From Erysipelotrichaceae bacterium (lineage in GTDB: Bacteria; Bacillota_I; Bacilli_A; Erysipelotrichales; Erysipelotrichaceae), in the NCBI GenBank assembly GCA_017539105.1, contig JAFYHQ010000022.1:1-54907 (forward strand): DNA of 54,907 nt, in the 5' to 3' direction. The position numbers and the translations under genes are program-made. Below the pieces are notes generated by a model. It worked only from the letters and a program-made list of their open reading frames with translations, searched no databases and was not told the DNA's origin. This document shows positions 16,321 to 26,330 of the stretch, in pieces. The stretch's first letter is position 1. The number at the start of each line of letters is the position of its first letter.

Positions 16321-17457
16321 ATGGACATCACCATGATCAGATCGGTATTAAACAACGAAATATTAAACTATATCACACAGATCGAACTTAACAGATATAG
16401 AGTATCTTCTGTGGCTCTTTCGCATTCTTTGACTGATAGACTGCGTAAGAATTCCAAGAAAAAGAGTTCTTATGCATCTACAAAAATCGAAGGCAATCCT
16501 CTTTCTCAGTCACAAGTCGATGAAGTGATCGATCGCGATGAAAGAAAACACTTTCTCAAACCGGAACAGGAAGTACGAAATTATTATCTTGCCTTGAATT
16601 ATCTGGAAGAGAAAGCGAAAGAGAAAGAACCATTCTCAAAGAAACTGATCCTTGATGTTCAGAGATATGTTGAAAAAGGAGCTTCAAAAGAAAAGATCGG
16701 TTTACGGGGTCCGATGCCTCCGGAAGTACTGTTTGCAGTCTATGATTCTCAGACAGGAAATCCTGATTATATTCCGCCGGAATATAGCGATATCCCTGAA
16801 CTGCTGGATGAGCTGGTAGAATATGTAAACACGACCGATGATCATCCTTTGATCGTTGCGGCTGTCGTTCATTATCAGCTGGTAACGATTCATCCCTTTG
16901 AAGATGGCAATGGCAGGACGGCGCGTCTGTTATCCGGTTATATTTTGAATCATGACGGTTTCGGATTTAATGGAATTGGTTCCTTGGAAGAGTATTTTGC
17001 TTATGATGTGAATGAATACTATGAAGCGATACAGATGGGACTGCCTGCATTATATTACAACGGCAGAAATGATCCGCCTCATCCTGAAATCTGGATCAGA
17101 TATTTCTTAAGAATGGTGCTTCTGTATTCGCGTAAGATATGTGAATTATCAGAAAGTTCTGATGAAGAAAACATCAGCGGAAGCCTTTCTTATCTTAAAA
17201 CAAAAGAAAAAAAATTACTGCTGTATCTGGTCGATCATGATCAGAACGAGTATACGCCGATCGAAATCAGCAAAGTGATAGGTACTACAAATCGGACAGC
17301 TATCAACAGACTGACTCATCTTGTGAAAAACGGTTTCGTGGAACCGCTTCTGGTCAAGGAACGGATCCGATCCTACCGGCTCAGTGATTTCAGCAGGCAG
17401 TATAAGAAGCAGATCAAAAAACGGATCGAATCGTTATTATTGTCGTCTGATGACTGA
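16321..17457 (+). CDS. Fic family protein (AMPylator-type, class II)
   Basis: A 378-residue Fic protein. The catalytic loop HPFEDGNGRTARLL lies near residue 193 and is intact. A Fic_N region includes the inhibitory motif STKIEGNP near residue 54, which in class II Fic proteins blocks the ATP site. A C-terminal winged-helix segment (residues ~285-370, PIEISKVIGTTNRTAINRLT) suggests DNA binding. Fic enzymes transfer AMP to target hydroxyl groups. The target is unknown. A TATAAT ends only four bases before the ATG, so the message may be leaderless or start at 16333. Confidence 0.88.
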   Translation: MDITMIRSVLNNEILNYITQIELNRYRVSSVALSHSLTDRLRKNSKKKSSYASTKIEGNPLSQSQVDEVIDRDERKHFLKPEQEVRNYYLALNYLEEKAKEKEPFSKKLILDVQRYVEKGASKEKIGLRGPMPPEVLFAVYDSQTGNPDYIPPEYSDIPELLDELVEYVNTTDDHPLIVAAVVHYQLVTIHPFEDGNGRTARLLSGYILNHDGFGFNGIGSLEEYFAYDVNEYYEAIQMGLPALYYNGRNDPPHPEIWIRYFLRMVLLYSRKICELSESSDEENISGSLSYLKTKEKKLLLYLVDHDQNEYTPIEISKVIGTTNRTAINRLTHLVKNGFVEPLLVKERIRSYRLSDFSRQYKKQIKKRIESLLLSSDD

Positions 17458-20234: not shown

Positions 20235-22298
20235 TTATCTCTCCAAAAGGTTGAATCTCGTAGTGAAAACGGTAATGATTTCCAGAAGCTGGTCATGGAG
20301 TTCGTCGGAGATCTTCTTTTCTTCTTCGATCTGTCGCATGATCTGCGGATGGACATGGTTCATTTCCGTCAGCAGTTCGTTTTCATAGTCTCTGATATCT
20401 TTCAATGGAACTTCATCGAGAAGCCCGTTCTTGTTGGCGAAGAGAAGGATGACCTGGTCCGCGGTAGCCAATGGGGCATACTGCGGCTGTTTCAAGAGTT
20501 CGACCACATGGCGTCCATGATCGATCTGCTTCCTGGTATTGCTGTCGAGGTCGGAACCGAACTGGGCGAAATCCAGAACTTCCTGGTACTGGGAAAGATC
20601 CAGCTTCAGGGAAGAGGATACGGATTTCATGGCCTTGGTCTGGGCAGCGGAACCGACTCTGGATACGGAGAGTCCGTAGTCGATGGCCGGACGGATGCCG
20701 CTGTTGAACAGTTCGCTCTGCAGGAAGATCTGTCCATCGGTAATGGAAATGACATTGGTCGGAATGTAGGCACTGATATCGCCTGCCTGGGTCTCGATGA
20801 TCGGCAGAGCCGTGATCGATCCTCCGCCCAGATCGTCATGCATACGGCAGGACCGTTCCAAAAGACGGGAATGCAGGTAGAAGACATCGCCCGGATAGGC
20901 TTCCCTTCCCGGAGGCCTTCTTAGCAGCAATGACAGCGTACGGTAGGCGACGGCGTGCTTGGAAAGGTCGTCATAGACGATCAGCACATCCTTGCCCTGA
21001 TGCATCCAGTATTCGGCGATGCTTGTGCCCGCATAAGGAGCGATATACTGCAAAGAAGCCAGTTCGCTGGCACCTGCCACCATGACGGTCGTATAATTCA
21101 TGGCTCCATACTGATGGAGTTTTTCGATGATCTGCGCTACGGTCGAATTCTTCTGGCCGATGGCCACATAGATGCAATAGACGTCTCTTCCGTTCTGGTT
21201 GATGATCGTATCGATTGCCAGTGCGGTCTTGCCGGTCTGGCGGTCGCCGATGATCAGTTCTCTCTGTCCTTTGCCGATCGGGATCATCGCATCGATGATC
21301 TTGATGCCGGTCTGCAGCGGTTCGTCGATCGGCTGGCGCTCGATGACGCCCGGAGCGTTGTTTTCGATCGGACGGAAATGTTCGGTCTTGATCGGACCTT
21401 TGCCATCGATGGGTCTTCCCAATGCATCGATGACTCTTCCCAGAAGTTCATCCCCGACAGGCACCTCTGCGACCTTGCCTGTAGAAGCGACTTTGGTTCC
21501 CTTTACGATCTCGCTGTCGTTGCCTAAAAGAACCGCGGCGATCTTGTTTTCCTGCAGGTCCATGACCATGGCCTTGGTGCTTCCCACATCCAGGATCTCG
21601 CCTGCCATGGCTTTACTGATTCCTGACAGATTGACGACGCCATCCGCCACGCTGATGACTTCGCCCATGGTATAGGCAGTCTGTCTCTGCAGATCGCTCT
21701 TATTGAAAGAAGCGATCTCTTCTTTCAGTTCCTTGCCGATGTCGTCGGATCTGACATCGAGTTCTTTCTGCAAGAGATTGTCTTTCAGTTCATTGATCTG
21801 GGCTTTGTAGCTGCCATCCCAGACGCTGTCGTTGATGGCGACTTTGACGCCGCCGATCAGGTCTTTGTCCAGCTTGTTTTCAAGCTTGATCGCTCTCTCC
21901 AGCTTATGAGTAAAGGCAGCTTCCAGGGTATATAAAGTCCCTTTGTCCAGTTCCCTGACGCTGTAGGCTGTCCCCAATGTGATGCCTCTGGTCTGATAGT
22001 AGTAGACCAGAAACTCATGGATCAGCCTGGACTCATAGCCTGCTTCCGGGATCGTATCGACGATCAGGAATAATCCGTAGAGTACGGACTCATCCAGATC
22101 ATGATCGAACGCTTCCTGCAAGGCCTGTTTCTTTTCCGCGGAACGGTGGTCCGGGGAATCGATGTATTTTAAAAGAACATCATTCTTGTTGAGTTCATCA
22201 TTGATTCGTTTGATTTCCGGATAAATCAGATCGACCTGCCCTTCCTGATTGGCCAGTTCCATCAGGTTGCGGGCATACGCCTTGATATCGACACTCAT
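20235..22298 (-). CDS. atpHA: Fused ATP synthase delta-alpha subunit
   Basis: One unbroken 687-residue frame. Residues 1-178 are a full delta (OSCP-like) subunit, starting AYARNLMELANQEG and ending in the GGVKVAINDSVWDGS strand region. Residues from about 180 are a complete alpha subunit starting SDDIGKELKEEIASF, with Walker A GDRQTGKT at 351-358. By comparison with E. coli alpha the join has no linker and loses almost nothing. No internal ATG lies near the join; a TTG at codon 176 has only a weak upstream AAAGA. Alpha is present three times and delta once in known enzymes, so the fusion raises a stoichiometry problem. It overlaps atpF by four bases. Confidence 0.95.
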   Translation of the reverse strand: MSVDIKAYARNLMELANQEGQVDLIYPEIKRINDELNKNDVLLKYIDSPDHRSAEKKQALQEAFDHDLDESVLYGLFLIVDTIPEAGYESRLIHEFLVYYYQTRGITLGTAYSVRELDKGTLYTLEAAFTHKLERAIKLENKLDKDLIGGVKVAINDSVWDGSYKAQINELKDNLLQKELDVRSDDIGKELKEEIASFNKSDLQRQTAYTMGEVISVADGVVNLSGISKAMAGEILDVGSTKAMVMDLQENKIAAVLLGNDSEIVKGTKVASTGKVAEVPVGDELLGRVIDALGRPIDGKGPIKTEHFRPIENNAPGVIERQPIDEPLQTGIKIIDAMIPIGKGQRELIIGDRQTGKTALAIDTIINQNGRDVYCIYVAIGQKNSTVAQIIEKLHQYGAMNYTTVMVAGASELASLQYIAPYAGTSIAEYWMHQGKDVLIVYDDLSKHAVAYRTLSLLLRRPPGREAYPGDVFYLHSRLLERSCRMHDDLGGGSITALPIIETQAGDISAYIPTNVISITDGQIFLQSELFNSGIRPAIDYGLSVSRVGSAAQTKAMKSVSSSLKLDLSQYQEVLDFAQFGSDLDSNTRKQIDHGRHVVELLKQPQYAPLATADQVILLFANKNGLLDEVPLKDIRDYENELLTEMNHVHPQIMRQIEEEKKISDELHDQLLEIITVFTTRFNLLER

Positions 22299-22804
22299 GA
22301 ATCGATCACTTCCTTAATGAAAGAACGGATCGATTCCTGTTCATTCGAAGCATCCAGTTTTTCCTGCAGGACTTTTTCTGCGGCACTGATAGTGACATCG
22401 ACGATTTCTTCGTGCATCTGTTTCATCATCTTGTCGTGCTGCAGTTCCATGTCCTTTCTGGCGTTCTCCAGAAGGAGCTTGGCTTCCTTCTGTCCTTCAT
22501 CCGTCAGCTGTTCCTTGAGCAGGTTGCCTTCTTCTCTGGCTTCCTTAAGGATGACTTCCGCGGTCTTATTCGCATCGAGGATGGCCTGCTTGGCTTCGGT
22601 ATTGAGCCGTTCGTTCTCTTCGATGAGTTTTTCCGCTTCCGTCAGTTTTGCCTGTTCATAGGCGGATCTCTCATCCAGAATCTTCTTGACCGGTTTCCAT
22701 GCCAGTTTATACATCAGAAAAAACAGCACGGCTGTCGCACAAAGCTGCGTGATCGCTGTCCAGACATTCGGTACGAGCTGAGACAGGATATCGACGATCT
22801 GCAT
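22295..22804 (-). CDS. atpF: ATP synthase b subunit
   Basis: A 169-residue outer-stalk subunit. A single N-terminal membrane span (ITQLCATAVLFFLMYKLAW) is followed by the conserved KPVKKILDER and a long charged coiled coil to about residue 150. The C-terminal tip would meet the delta portion of the fused protein. It is two bases from atpE and overlaps the fusion gene. Confidence 0.95.
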   Translation of the reverse strand: MQIVDILSQLVPNVWTAITQLCATAVLFFLMYKLAWKPVKKILDERSAYEQAKLTEAEKLIEENERLNTEAKQAILDANKTAEVILKEAREEGNLLKEQLTDEGQKEAKLLLENARKDMELQHDKMMKQMHEEIVDVTISAAEKVLQEKLDASNEQESIRSFIKEVIDS

Positions 22805-22805
22805 C

Positions 22806-23036
22806 TTAAGCTCCTAAAATGAAGATGATCAGGAAAGCGGTAAGCAGACAGTAGATGGCACAGGTCTCGGAAATGGCGGCACCGATGATGGCCATGGACT
22901 GGATCTTGCTGGCGGCATCGGGATTCTTGCCGATCTGTTCGACGGCAGTGATCGCGACTTTGCCTTCCATGATACCGGTGATACAGCCGCCTAAGACACA
23001 GAGCGTTGCCGCAAAACCTATTAATGCTTTTTCCAT
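22806..23036 (-). CDS. atpE: ATP synthase c subunit with two-carboxylate motif
   Basis: A 76-residue hairpin forming the rotor ring. Helix 2 carries the ion-binding glutamate in AAISETCAIY (Glu57, Thr58). Helix 1 has a second glutamate, Glu24 in GIMEGK, at the position of Gln32 in Ilyobacter c. The Glu24-Glu57 distance of 33 equals Glu32-Glu65 of the Fusobacterium nucleatum sodium-driven ring. Thr58 takes the place of the sodium-ligand serine. This favours sodium coupling, by comparison only. The polar loop (KNPDA) is standard. Confidence 0.95.
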   Translation of the reverse strand: MEKALIGFAATLCVLGGCITGIMEGKVAITAVEQIGKNPDAASKIQSMAIIGAAISETCAIYCLLTAFLIIFILGA

Positions 23037-23047
23037 ATGTTTTCCCC

Positions 23048-23731
23048 CTATTCTTTCTGTGGAAGTTCTTTTCCGATAAATGATAACGATAAGATCGTGA
23101 AGATATATGACTGCATCGCTCCTGAGAACAGATCGAAATAGAAATGCAGTACCGGAGCGAGGATGATGCCGAAGATATTGAGTTTGCCTATGAGAGGTAT
23201 TTTATTGGAAACGGCTGCCAGCATCTGGTAGATGACCGACATCAGGATGCCTCCCGAGAGAATGTTGCCGAACAGACGCAGAGACAACGACAGGAGCGTC
23301 GAGAACTTGCTCAGGACATTCAGGACCACGAATGGTGCGAACGGTTCGAACCAGGTCTTGAGATATGCCTTGCCTCCTCTGGCTTTGAGGGAACAGACTT
23401 CGATCAGGATGCAGGTAATCGCCGCCAGAACCAGCGTCACGCTGTAGTTGGAAGTCGGCGTATCCAGGGAGAAGAGTCCCGCGATATTGGCCAGGAAGAT
23501 GTAGGAGATGACCGTCATGATGTATGGCGTCAGATACTTGGCGAAACGTTCATCCGTCTTGTCTTTGACCATCTTGTCGATCATTTCCGCAAAGATCATC
23601 ACCAGCAATACGATGCCTGTAGGCTTGCTTAAAGGATCGAAGGCCTTCAGTTTCCTGTTGATGTACAGCAGCAAAAGAGCCATGAAGACAGTGATGATGA
23701 TAATGGAATAGACCGTTGTCTGAATGACCAT
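23048..23731 (-). CDS. atpB: ATP synthase a subunit
   Basis: A 227-residue stator membrane subunit forming the ion half-channels. Five or six spans are seen. The essential arginine lies in LSLRLFGNILSGG near residue 153, and the late helix FYFDLFSGAMQSYIFTILS is conserved. It is shorter at the N-terminus than the E. coli form, as usual in Firmicutes. It follows atpI by one base. Confidence 0.95.
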   Translation of the reverse strand: MVIQTTVYSIIIITVFMALLLLYINRKLKAFDPLSKPTGIVLLVMIFAEMIDKMVKDKTDERFAKYLTPYIMTVISYIFLANIAGLFSLDTPTSNYSVTLVLAAITCILIEVCSLKARGGKAYLKTWFEPFAPFVVLNVLSKFSTLLSLSLRLFGNILSGGILMSVIYQMLAAVSNKIPLIGKLNIFGIILAPVLHFYFDLFSGAMQSYIFTILSLSFIGKELPQKE

Positions 23732-23732
23732 C

Positions 23733-24080
23733 CTATGCTCCTTTCCTGCTTAAGGCATCGATCACGAGACTGACCATGAACAGGACCAGTCCGATGGTGA
23801 CGCCATAGATATTGAAATACTGCGGATTCCGGATCGCGATATAGATCACCAGGGCCAGCAGTCCGTAACGGAAGATATTGCTCATGATCAGCAGCGGGTA
23901 GTTGCGCATATCCTGTTCCTTCATCACCATCGACATGCTGGCAGATAGCAGCAGCAGATTGACCAGGCTTGCCAGGGTCGCTGTCATGATTCCGATCGAA
24001 ATCGTATAGTCAAAAAAGAAAGCGATGATGCTTAAGATGATGGCGATAAGTGCTGTCAGATAATAGATCTTAAGTTTCAT
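23733..24080 (-). CDS. atpI: ATP synthase subunit I (AtpI-like)
   Basis: A 115-residue protein with four hydrophobic helices placed first in the operon, the normal position of AtpI, which helps assemble the c ring. Sequence conservation in this family is low, so context and topology are the main support. No good ribosome binding site is visible. A 6-bp hairpin (GTATCA/TGATAC) occupies the region just before the ATG. Confidence 0.75.
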   Translation of the reverse strand: MKLKIYYLTALIAIILSIIAFFFDYTISIGIMTATLASLVNLLLLSASMSMVMKEQDMRNYPLLIMSNIFRYGLLALVIYIAIRNPQYFNIYGVTIGLVLFMVSLVIDALSRKGA

Positions 24081-25704: not shown

Positions 25705-25899
25705 ATGCCTATGACACCTAAGGAAATGGTGAGATTCCTGAAGAAACACGGGTTCGTAAGAACTCCGGGCGGGAAAGGTTCTCATTGGAAATACTACAAT
25801 CCCAAGACCGGAAGATCTACAACTGTTCCTTATCACAACAGAAGTATGAGTATAGGAACGGAACAGGCCACACTCAGACAGGCAGGACTGAAAAAATAA
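25705..25899 (+). CDS. hicA: HicA toxin
   Basis: A 64-residue canonical HicA mRNA interferase. The catalytic GSH motif appears in GGKGSHWKYYNP near residue 25, followed by STTVPYHNRSMSIGTEQATL and the final LRQAGLKK helix. GGGGGTG precedes the ATG by eight bases. A second in-frame ATG at 25711 is possible. It is different in sequence from the HicA-like protein at 10858, so the two modules are not recent duplicates. Confidence 0.92.
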   Translation: MPMTPKEMVRFLKKHGFVRTPGGKGSHWKYYNPKTGRSTTVPYHNRSMSIGTEQATLRQAGLKK

Positions 25900-25925
25900 C
25901 TTAAGTATATTAGGAGGAATTTCAA

Positions 25926-26330
25926 ATGGCAAAAATCTATTATCCCGCACTATTTCATGTCGCTGAAGATATCGGCGGATATTGGGTCGAGTTTCCTGAT
26001 CTTCCCGGCTGTCTGACAGAAGGCAGGAATGAGGTCGAAGCGATGGAGATGGCGGAAGATGCTTTGGGACTTTGGCTGGACCGTACCGGTGAAACATGGG
26101 AAAGAGAGATCCTTCCCCCTTCTACCTGTGAAGCGATCCGGAAACAGTTTCCCGATGAATTGGTCATGATGGTGGGTTGCGATCCGGAAGAATGGTATCG
26201 CAGGACACATTCCAGAGCAATCAAGAAGACACTTACGATTCCGGCATGGCTGAATGAACGCGCAACGAAAGCGAACCTCAATTTCTCAAAGATCCTGAAA
26301 GAGGCACTGATCGATAAACTGGGCCTATGA
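25926..26330 (+). CDS. hicB: HicB antitoxin
   Basis: A 134-residue antitoxin. Residues 1-60 show the HicB signature (YPALFHVAEDIGGYWVEFPD, then LPGCLTEG, then AEDALGLWL). Residues 95-134 (KKTLTIPAWLNERATKANLN, FSKILKEALIDKL) form an Arc-type ribbon-helix-helix domain. It has a strong TAGGAGG site. The stop overlaps the start of a GNAT gene by ATGA, which is unusual because hicAB is normally a two-gene unit. Confidence 0.92.
   Translation: MAKIYYPALFHVAEDIGGYWVEFPDLPGCLTEGRNEVEAMEMAEDALGLWLDRTGETWEREILPPSTCEAIRKQFPDELVMMVGCDPEEWYRRTHSRAIKKTLTIPAWLNERATKANLNFSKILKEALIDKLGL

What the first reader, a model, noticed from the sequence alone, without database searches (positions are those of the whole stretch)
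20235..22298. ATP synthase delta and alpha subunits fused in one reading frame
Seen: a complete delta domain (1-178) runs straight into a complete alpha subunit (from ~180) with no stop, linker or loss of conserved residues, inside an otherwise normal operon. Known: F1 has three alpha and one delta. Inference: either the ring carries three delta domains, or free alpha is made by internal initiation (a TTG at codon 176 with weak AAAGA upstream) or by cleavage. Any of these would be new biology for this enzyme.
Basis: partly seen in the sequence, partly recalled or inferred. Interest (0 to 1): 0.82.

Follow-up and report, generated by a model that had tools for sequence, protein, structure and literature searches.

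The report
Naturally fused ATP synthase delta-alpha subunit
In a group of bacteria, some of them from animal guts, the ATP-making enzyme is built from a protein that joins its delta stator piece to its alpha ring piece, so each enzyme probably carries three delta copies instead of one; this lets us test whether natural ATP synthases can have more than one outer stalk.

Summary
In detail: window 22298..20235 (-) is one open 687-codon frame with complete delta and alpha in an otherwise normal operon. It is not an error: 33 complete fused frames (window included) and 5 cut by contig ends were listed among 272 genomes of the family; in the window's genus none of 23 fused genomes has another delta match. 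Internal initiation is not supported: the proposed TTG is TTA in a 97%-identical relative and no start is shared by the 33. After fusion the alpha N-terminal helix, which normally docks on delta, diverges about three times faster relative to alpha while both delta domains stay constrained. I favour three covalent delta-alpha chains per F1 (inferred). Fusion arose independently in Lachnospiraceae/Ruminococcaceae relatives, often without the delta N-domain, once even as b-delta-alpha holding the genome's only b. Precedent: PMC12229609 engineered an N-truncated fusion with up to three stalks and reports natural N-truncated ones. New here: the full-length version as sole enzyme, docking-helix decay, order of events. 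Stalk number is untested.

The parts
20235..22298 (-). delta-alpha fusion ORF (687 aa, 76.4 kDa); its ATG overlaps the stop of the b gene (ATGA)
21984..22298 (-). delta N-terminal domain, residues 1-105 (retained)
   Evidence: Pfam OSCP 6-175; alignment with separate deltas
22023..22076 (-). rewritten stretch of the delta N-terminal domain (residues 75-92): canonical F75, L79, K82, R85 lost; F77, E89, L92 fixed in the fused clade
21765..21983 (-). delta C-terminal domain, residues 106-178
   Evidence: one alignment with engineered chain 9jc1_I spans window residues 105-678
21684..21764 (-). junction and former alpha N-terminal docking helix, residues 179-205, fast-evolving after fusion
21771..21773 (-). 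in-frame TTG (codon 176) proposed as internal start; TTA in the closest relative
20238..21683 (-). alpha subunit proper (beta-barrel, nucleotide-binding, C-terminal domains)
22295..22804 (-). subunit b
   Evidence: PF00430
22806..23036 (-). subunit c; Glu aligned with the helix-1 Glu of chain 3zk1_A
23048..23731 (-). subunit a
   Evidence: PF00119
23733..24080 (-). subunit I
   Evidence: PF03899
19395..20234 (-). subunit gamma
   Evidence: PF00231
18004..19395 (-). subunit beta
   Evidence: PF00006
17613..18056 (-). subunit epsilon (listed ORF; true start uncertain)
   Evidence: PF02823/PF00401

Best explanation
The only alpha this bacterium is seen to encode is a covalent delta-alpha chain, so its F1 head carries three delta domains (inferred). 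Each former alpha N-terminal helix is now the short bridge between a delta C-terminal domain and its own alpha; it no longer has to dock as a free helix and has lost most of its docking sequence (the loss is shown by comparison, the reason inferred). Each alpha thus presents its own stalk-binding delta C-terminal domain, which could receive one to three b2 stalks and a subunits (inferred). The retained N-terminal domains are remodelled around residues 75-92, presumably for a new way of packing on the crown (inferred).
For: Sole delta match in the window assembly; in all 23 fused genomes of the genus (20 complete, 3 cut by contig ends) the one OSCP match lies in the fused or cut frame. 33 complete fused frames, window included. 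No shared internal start: 23 of 23 separate alphas start at codon -19 to -24 with an SD match of 4 nt or more; of the 33 fused, 6 have an ATG at -19/-20 with at most 3 nt, 5 have no start codon from -45 to +3. Alpha N-helix divergence relative to alpha core: 4.81 fused (16 disjoint pairs) vs 1.61 separate (14), p=6.5e-6; Lachno/Rumino full-length fusions 2.68 (16) vs 1.62 (12), p=8.8e-5. A free alpha docking on a free delta should keep that helix. The engineered delta(CTD)-alpha fusion assembles, with up to three stalks (PMC12229609); PDB chain 9jc1_I aligns with window residues 105-678. In G393 b, delta C-domain and alpha are one 778-aa chain and PF00430 finds no other b, so there each alpha must bring its own b unless the chain is cut.
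Against: No protein-level data. PMC12229609 holds that the delta N-terminal domain limits the enzyme to one stalk; here it is retained and not relaxed (2.41 vs 3.51 in separate, p=0.077), which speaks against three full stalks. Delta helix-1 residues Y8, A9, L12, L15 stay conserved, and in the old alpha helix I195 stays 76% with hydrophobic residues common at 191 and 198, so some docking may persist. 10 of 33 fused genes have a scattered in-frame start behind a 4-5 nt SD-like match, and 11 of 33 share an ATG at -36 to -39 in the last delta helix, though the window does not. One b gene in the operon and nothing shows extra b. Cleavage is not excluded. No Rnf-type match in the assembly, so a low-gradient synthase role has no support.
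Confidence: 0.6

Rival explanations
1. The fusion is made but cut by a protease in the junction, giving normal 3 alpha : 1 delta stoichiometry, with surplus delta degraded.
For: The junction is variable; the alpha N-terminal sequence need not be kept if alpha is trimmed.
Against: No shared cleavage motif seen by eye in the 33 fused rows; fusion arose more than once; in G393 a cut would also have to free b.
Confidence: 0.17
2. Internal translation initiation supplies free alpha, giving one delta-alpha plus two alpha per F1.
For: It would give the normal stoichiometry; 6 of 33 fused genes have an ATG near the old alpha start, and 10 of 33 have some in-frame start in the stretch behind a 4-5 nt SD-like match.
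Against: The codon-176 TTG is TTA in the closest relative; starts differ in place between relatives and 5 of 33 have none; no synonymous dip at the junction; the alpha docking helix has decayed.
Confidence: 0.08
3. Three delta-alpha chains are present but only one b2 stalk binds; the other two delta domains are idle. (A sub-case of the best explanation, about half of its weight.)
For: The delta N-terminal domain is retained and was argued to restrict stalks to one (PMC12229609); one b gene in a normal operon.
Against: N-domain loss after fusion in the Lachno/Rumino lineages and the b-delta-alpha chain of G393 suggest that fused enzymes tend to give each alpha its own stalk; neither is in the window's clade.
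Confidence: 0.27
4. Assembly or sequencing error removed the stop codon.
For: None found.
Against: 33 complete fused frames in separate assemblies down to 55% identity.
Confidence: 0.01

Closest known systems
Engineered Bacillus PS3 deltaDeltaN-alpha FoF1 (PMC12229609; PDB chain 9jc1_I, taken to be this construct)
   Same: delta C-terminal domain fused through a short linker to the alpha N-terminus, sole delta and alpha of the enzyme; aligns with window residues 105-678
   Different: Engineered; delta residues 2-104 deleted, whereas the window protein keeps them; stalk number known there (up to three, two on average), unknown here
Natural N-truncated delta-alpha fusions (Acidaminococcus fermentans; UniProt G4Q3K6 and A0A1I2C5T3 as 'similar'; PMC12229609)
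   Same: Natural delta-alpha gene fusion
   Different: Reported without the N-terminal domain; I did not fetch these records. Butyrivibrio L078/L106 are of this kind
Canonical F-type ATP synthase of the same family and order, with separate atpH and atpA
   Same: Nearest alpha relatives in the tree (one clade, support 99)
   Different: Two genes, each with its own start and SD; conserved alpha N-terminal docking helix
b-delta fusion (mentioned in a passage of PMC5709465; the mycobacterial case is recalled)
   Same: A natural fusion that involves delta of the peripheral stalk
   Different: delta joined to b, not alpha; one delta per enzyme (recalled)

Membership tests
F-type ATP synthase alpha subunit | beta-barrel, nucleotide-binding and C-terminal domains with P-loop (GDRQTGKT) | tested here: met
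   PF02874, PF00006, PF00306; motif in translation
F-type ATP synthase delta/OSCP | OSCP profile over both domains | tested here: met
   PF00213 residues 6-175, profile 3-172 of 172
F-type ATP synthase operon | all eight subunits in a-c-b-delta-alpha-gamma-beta-epsilon order | tested here: met
Canonical alpha-delta docking | conserved alpha N-terminal helix E-I-S-x-L-I-x-x-Q-I | tested here: not met
   E186, I187, I191, Q194: 90-100% in 29 separate rows of the same family and order; commonest residue at most 48% in 33 fused; I195 100% vs 76%
N-truncated delta-alpha multi-stalk class of PMC12229609 | delta C-terminal domain fused in frame to alpha | tested here: met
N-truncated delta-alpha multi-stalk class of PMC12229609 | delta N-terminal domain absent | tested here: not met
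   residues 1-105 present in the window; none of the 33 fused rows of its clade is under 80% occupancy over the N-domain
N-truncated delta-alpha multi-stalk class of PMC12229609 | more than one b2 stalk and a subunit per enzyme | not testable with these tools
Two-carboxylate Na+ c-ring (the name for 3zk1 is recalled) | carboxylate in helix 1 plus ET-x-x-x-Y type motif in helix 2 | tested here: inconclusive
   Sequence pattern present: E aligned with E of 3zk1_A and SETCAIY; the ion was not tested

The most novel reading that the evidence does not exclude
These bacteria have a naturally multi-stalk ATP synthase: three full delta-alpha chains hold two or three b2/a stator units, with the retained delta N-terminal domains remodelled into a cap around the threefold axis. 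This would multiply the ions moved per ATP with no larger c-ring. The b-delta-alpha chain of G393 would be the extreme form, one stalk built into each alpha.
Probability: 0.33. Interest if true: 0.92.

Novelty: new variant of a known kind. Interest (0 to 1): 0.76.

Why it matters
One peripheral stalk and one a subunit per enzyme has been taken as universal; [quoted passage not shown] Dozens of Bacillota genomes carry the gene architecture that its authors used to break that rule, in the window's clade with the domain said to enforce the rule still present, and in one relative with b fused on as well. That gives a natural test of what sets stator number and of the ion/ATP ratio in anaerobes.

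Tried and rejected
Assembly error: rejected. Internal start at TTG176: rejected by comparison. A hidden separate delta: no other OSCP match in the window assembly or in the 23 fused genomes of the genus (assemblies incomplete). A V-type ATPase as the main enzyme: no PF01813 match in the assembly. Rnf: no PF03116 match. A split delta (N-domain gene just before N-truncated fusions): looked at by eye upstream of 21 loci, 20 N-truncated (of 21 in the tree) and L198; the readable upstream frame looked like subunit b in each, though some have under 300 bases. One origin for all fusions: rejected by AU test on 60 of the 156 rows. Long frames whose match began in alpha or whose length was odd were fetched for 9 genomes: 6 have short upstream parts, L267 has 199 open codons without a delta match, L268 (G393) and L269 (G693) have delta C-domain joined to alpha behind a b or b-like part. 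Species-tree check with the RarA-like protein: confused by a paralogue; the paralogue found in most genomes gave 33 rows of 36, where fused genomes cluster but are not one clade. Literature searches that could have shown natural delta-alpha fusions; among the listed papers I saw it only in PMC12229609; none of these searches was aimed at b-delta-alpha. Papers: PMC12229609 sections 6 and 13 read in full plus passages; PMC4057687, PMC4478896, PMC5706428, PMC5709465 passages only; others only in search listings.

Full report
Observation. The window carries one F-type ATP synthase operon on the minus strand: I (23733-24080), a, c, b, then a single 687-codon frame (22298..20235), gamma, beta, epsilon. 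The long frame holds a delta/OSCP match at residues 6-175 and then the three alpha domains. Its ATG overlaps the b stop (ATGA) behind an AAGGAAGTGA stretch. The assembly (2.09 Mb, 48 contigs, 89% complete) has one OSCP match, this one, and two matches to the fusion protein, of which the second was not listed and I take it to be beta. The family name Erysipelotrichaceae comes from the record title of the 97%-identical relative L032.

Is it real? Yes. Among 272 genomes of the family 33 complete fused frames of 683-703 codons are listed, the window's included, in three genus groups (g1 20, g23 8, g26 5), and 5 more are cut by contig ends (the row list is truncated at its weak end, so these are at-least numbers). 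Of the 36 genomes of the window's genus 20 are fused, 3 fused but cut, 9 have separate genes and 4 have no match. Each of the 23 fused ones has exactly one OSCP match, in the fused or cut frame; this was not tested for g23 and g26. Identity to the window falls to 55%. G005 and L032 look like one and the same assembly (same coordinates).

No shared internal start. In 23 of 23 separate alphas of the same family and order the start lies 19-24 codons before a fixed alpha point, with an SD match of at least 4 nt. Of the 33 fused genes 6 have an ATG at -19/-20 with at most 3 nt of SD match, 11 have an ATG at -36 to -39 in the last delta helix (not the window), 10 have some start in the scanned stretch (-45 to +3) behind a 4-5 nt SD-like match, at differing places, and 5 have no start there. 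In 15 relatives (window not among them) codons 166-195 show ordinary synonymous variation (0.54-0.55 of same-residue codon pairs differ; 0.31-0.60 along the gene).

What changed after fusion. I compared delta N-domain, delta C-domain, alpha N-helix and alpha core in 33 fused and 29 separate rows of the same family and order (L123 was dropped because no delta was found). At alpha-core identity 0.70-0.75 the alpha N-helix is 0.18 identical in fused pairs and 0.61 in separate pairs, the N-domain 0.36 vs 0.30, the C-domain 0.47 vs 0.33. With disjoint pairs (L164 also dropped, its delta being poor) the ratio of N-helix to core divergence is 4.81 (16 pairs) vs 1.61 (14), p=6.5e-6; N-domain 2.41 vs 3.51, p=0.077; C-domain 2.28 vs 3.06, p=0.15. 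Lachno/Rumino full-length fusions (16 pairs) against their separate relatives (12): N-helix 2.68 vs 1.62, p=8.8e-5; N-domain 2.88 vs 3.27, p=0.24; C-domain 1.99 vs 2.9, p=0.001, that is slower. N-truncated fusions (10 pairs): N-helix 2.2, p=0.027. The alignment of the short N-helix across linkers of unequal length adds some noise. The lost signature is E-I-S-x-L-I-x-x-Q-I, of which I195 stays at 76%. On the delta side F75, L79, K82 and R85 are lost while N33, N37, L42, F77, E89, L92 and Y100, among others, become fixed; helix-1 residues Y8, A9, L12, L15 stay. In the Lachno/Rumino lineage R85 is already variable in separate deltas, so this second change is not parallel there. In mitochondria OSCP helices 1 and 5 bind the alpha N-terminus, with a contact of alpha E7 and OSCP R94 (PMC4057687, passage); that R85 and E186 are the equivalent positions rests on recall. 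In alpha, positions fixed in separate but replaced in fused proteins are commoner in the crown barrel (5 of 70) than elsewhere (7 of 407), p=0.02; post hoc and weak.

Reading. A free alpha that docks on a free delta should keep its docking helix. Its faster change in independent fusion lineages, with both delta domains still constrained, fits a chain that works uncut, hence three delta per F1. This is inference; no protein was measured. From delta L175 to alpha G212 there are 29-39 residues (median 37) in the 33 fused rows, against a combined 27-38 (median 31) for the two free ends in separate relatives (the latter depend on how I cut the ends), so no long linker was added.

Spread and history. 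Counting listed frames without a stop whose match begins in delta, I get 18 of 669-703 codons and 34 of 576-643 among 250 genomes of one family (centre GAM79, Lachnospiraceae), and 9 of 671-681 and 9 of 585-643 among 197 of another (centre a Ruminococcus) (truncated lists). In Butyrivibrio INlla21 subunit b is followed directly by delta C-domain plus alpha. Of the six non-Ruminococcus genomes that carry the Lachno/Rumino type (G312-G317) five have a second, canonical OSCP and one does not; the eight Ruminococcus genomes G318-G325 have only the fusion. Of 40 further genomes 17 have one OSCP match, in 16 of them the fused frame (8 N-truncated, 8 long frames, of which G657 has an unclear N-domain) and in G509 the canonical gene (completeness not given). 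In the alpha-core tree (156 rows: 65 full, 21 N-truncated, 70 separate; quick method, 55 forks open) the 33 fusions of the window's family are one clade (support 100) inside alphas of its family and order; the others lie in another clade of 78 rows. One clade for all fusions is rejected (AU p 1e-36, 60 rows). Parsimony needs 17 changes with free costs, then including 3 regains; if a lost N-domain cannot return, 6 to 8 fusions, 15 losses from full fusions and 1 N-truncated fusion straight from separate genes. Fusion first and N-domain loss later is the likely route; the numbers are soft. The N-truncated second operons of G036, G045 and G055, of the window's family, fall in the Lachno/Rumino clade, which suggests transfer. 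A RarA-like marker puts 19 of 21 fused genomes of the genus in one clade of 22 with 3 genomes that lack OSCP; G004 and G023 fall outside. So inheritance looks mostly vertical.

An extreme case, found while checking counts. In G393 (drawn) the operon reads a, c, one 778-codon frame, gamma, beta, epsilon. The frame has subunit b (PF00430 at 9-137), delta C-domain (PF00213, best stretch 131-249, profile 54-171) and alpha, and PF00430 finds no other b in the genome. Unless it is cut, each alpha there brings its own membrane-anchored b. In G693 a separate b gene is followed by a 749-codon frame with a hydrophobic, b-like N-terminal part that Pfam does not recognise, delta C-domain and alpha.

Against what is known. 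PMC12229609 (sections 6 and 13 read; passages) fused the delta C-terminal domain to alpha in Bacillus PS3, saw up to three stalks, two on average, and an H+/ATP ratio of 5.8, and argues that the delta N-domain limits stalks to one. Its Discussion reports the N-truncated fusion in Acidaminococcus fermentans and similar features in two UniProt entries. A PDB chain named as delta plus alpha (9jc1_I, 580 aa), which I take to be that construct, is the only such name among the 60 hits shown of 210. What I add: full-length fusions, which the parts I read do not mention, as sole enzyme in a clade; their spread; the docking-helix decay; the order of events; b-delta-alpha. The window case meets 'delta C-domain fused to alpha' but not 'N-domain absent', so I call it a new variant, not a member of the N-truncated class.

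Limits. Stalk number, stoichiometry and ion ratio are untested. The retained N-domain is the strongest point against three stalks. Subunit c has a Glu aligned with the helix-1 Glu of 3zk1 and an ET-x-x-x-Y type motif in the window and in the other 29 fused rows where I found c (30 of 33), so Na+ coupling is possible, not shown. No Rnf or V-type match was found in the assembly, so the enzyme may run as an ATP-driven pump.

Noticed in passing
L270:3656-5992 (G393): Natural b-delta(C-domain)-alpha triple fusion of 778 aa in an operon a-c-[b-delta-alpha]-gamma-beta-epsilon; the only b match in that genome.
   Followed up: partly
L271:3463-6149 (G693): Separate b gene followed by a 749-aa frame with a hydrophobic b-like N-terminal part, delta C-domain and alpha.
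   Followed up: partly
window 22806-23036: c subunit has Glu at the helix-1 ion site aligned with 3zk1; same in the 30 of 33 fused rows where c was found, while in the listed Lachno/Rumino fusions the residue is not a carboxylate.
   Followed up: partly
L078 3962-5746 and L106 (Butyrivibrio): Natural N-truncated delta-alpha fusion of 595 aa, close to the engineered construct; in L078 the b gene is directly upstream. Both genomes also have a canonical delta elsewhere.
   Followed up: partly
L120, L121, L122 (G036, G055, G045): Genomes of the window's family with a second F-ATPase operon of N-truncated delta-alpha type that groups with Lachno/Rumino enzymes, suggesting horizontal transfer.
   Followed up: partly
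L154 (G009): Separate delta of 211 codons with an extra stretch of about 35 residues in the N-terminal domain, and a GTG-started alpha with an altered N-helix, in a same-genus genome.
   Followed up: no
G007, G011, G013, G035: Four same-genus genomes show no delta or alpha match; G013 is 90% complete, so the F-ATPase may be lost there.
   Followed up: no
window 16321-17457: Fic-domain protein next to the ATP synthase operon.
   Followed up: no
window 25705-26330: HicA/HicB-type toxin-antitoxin pair.
   Followed up: no
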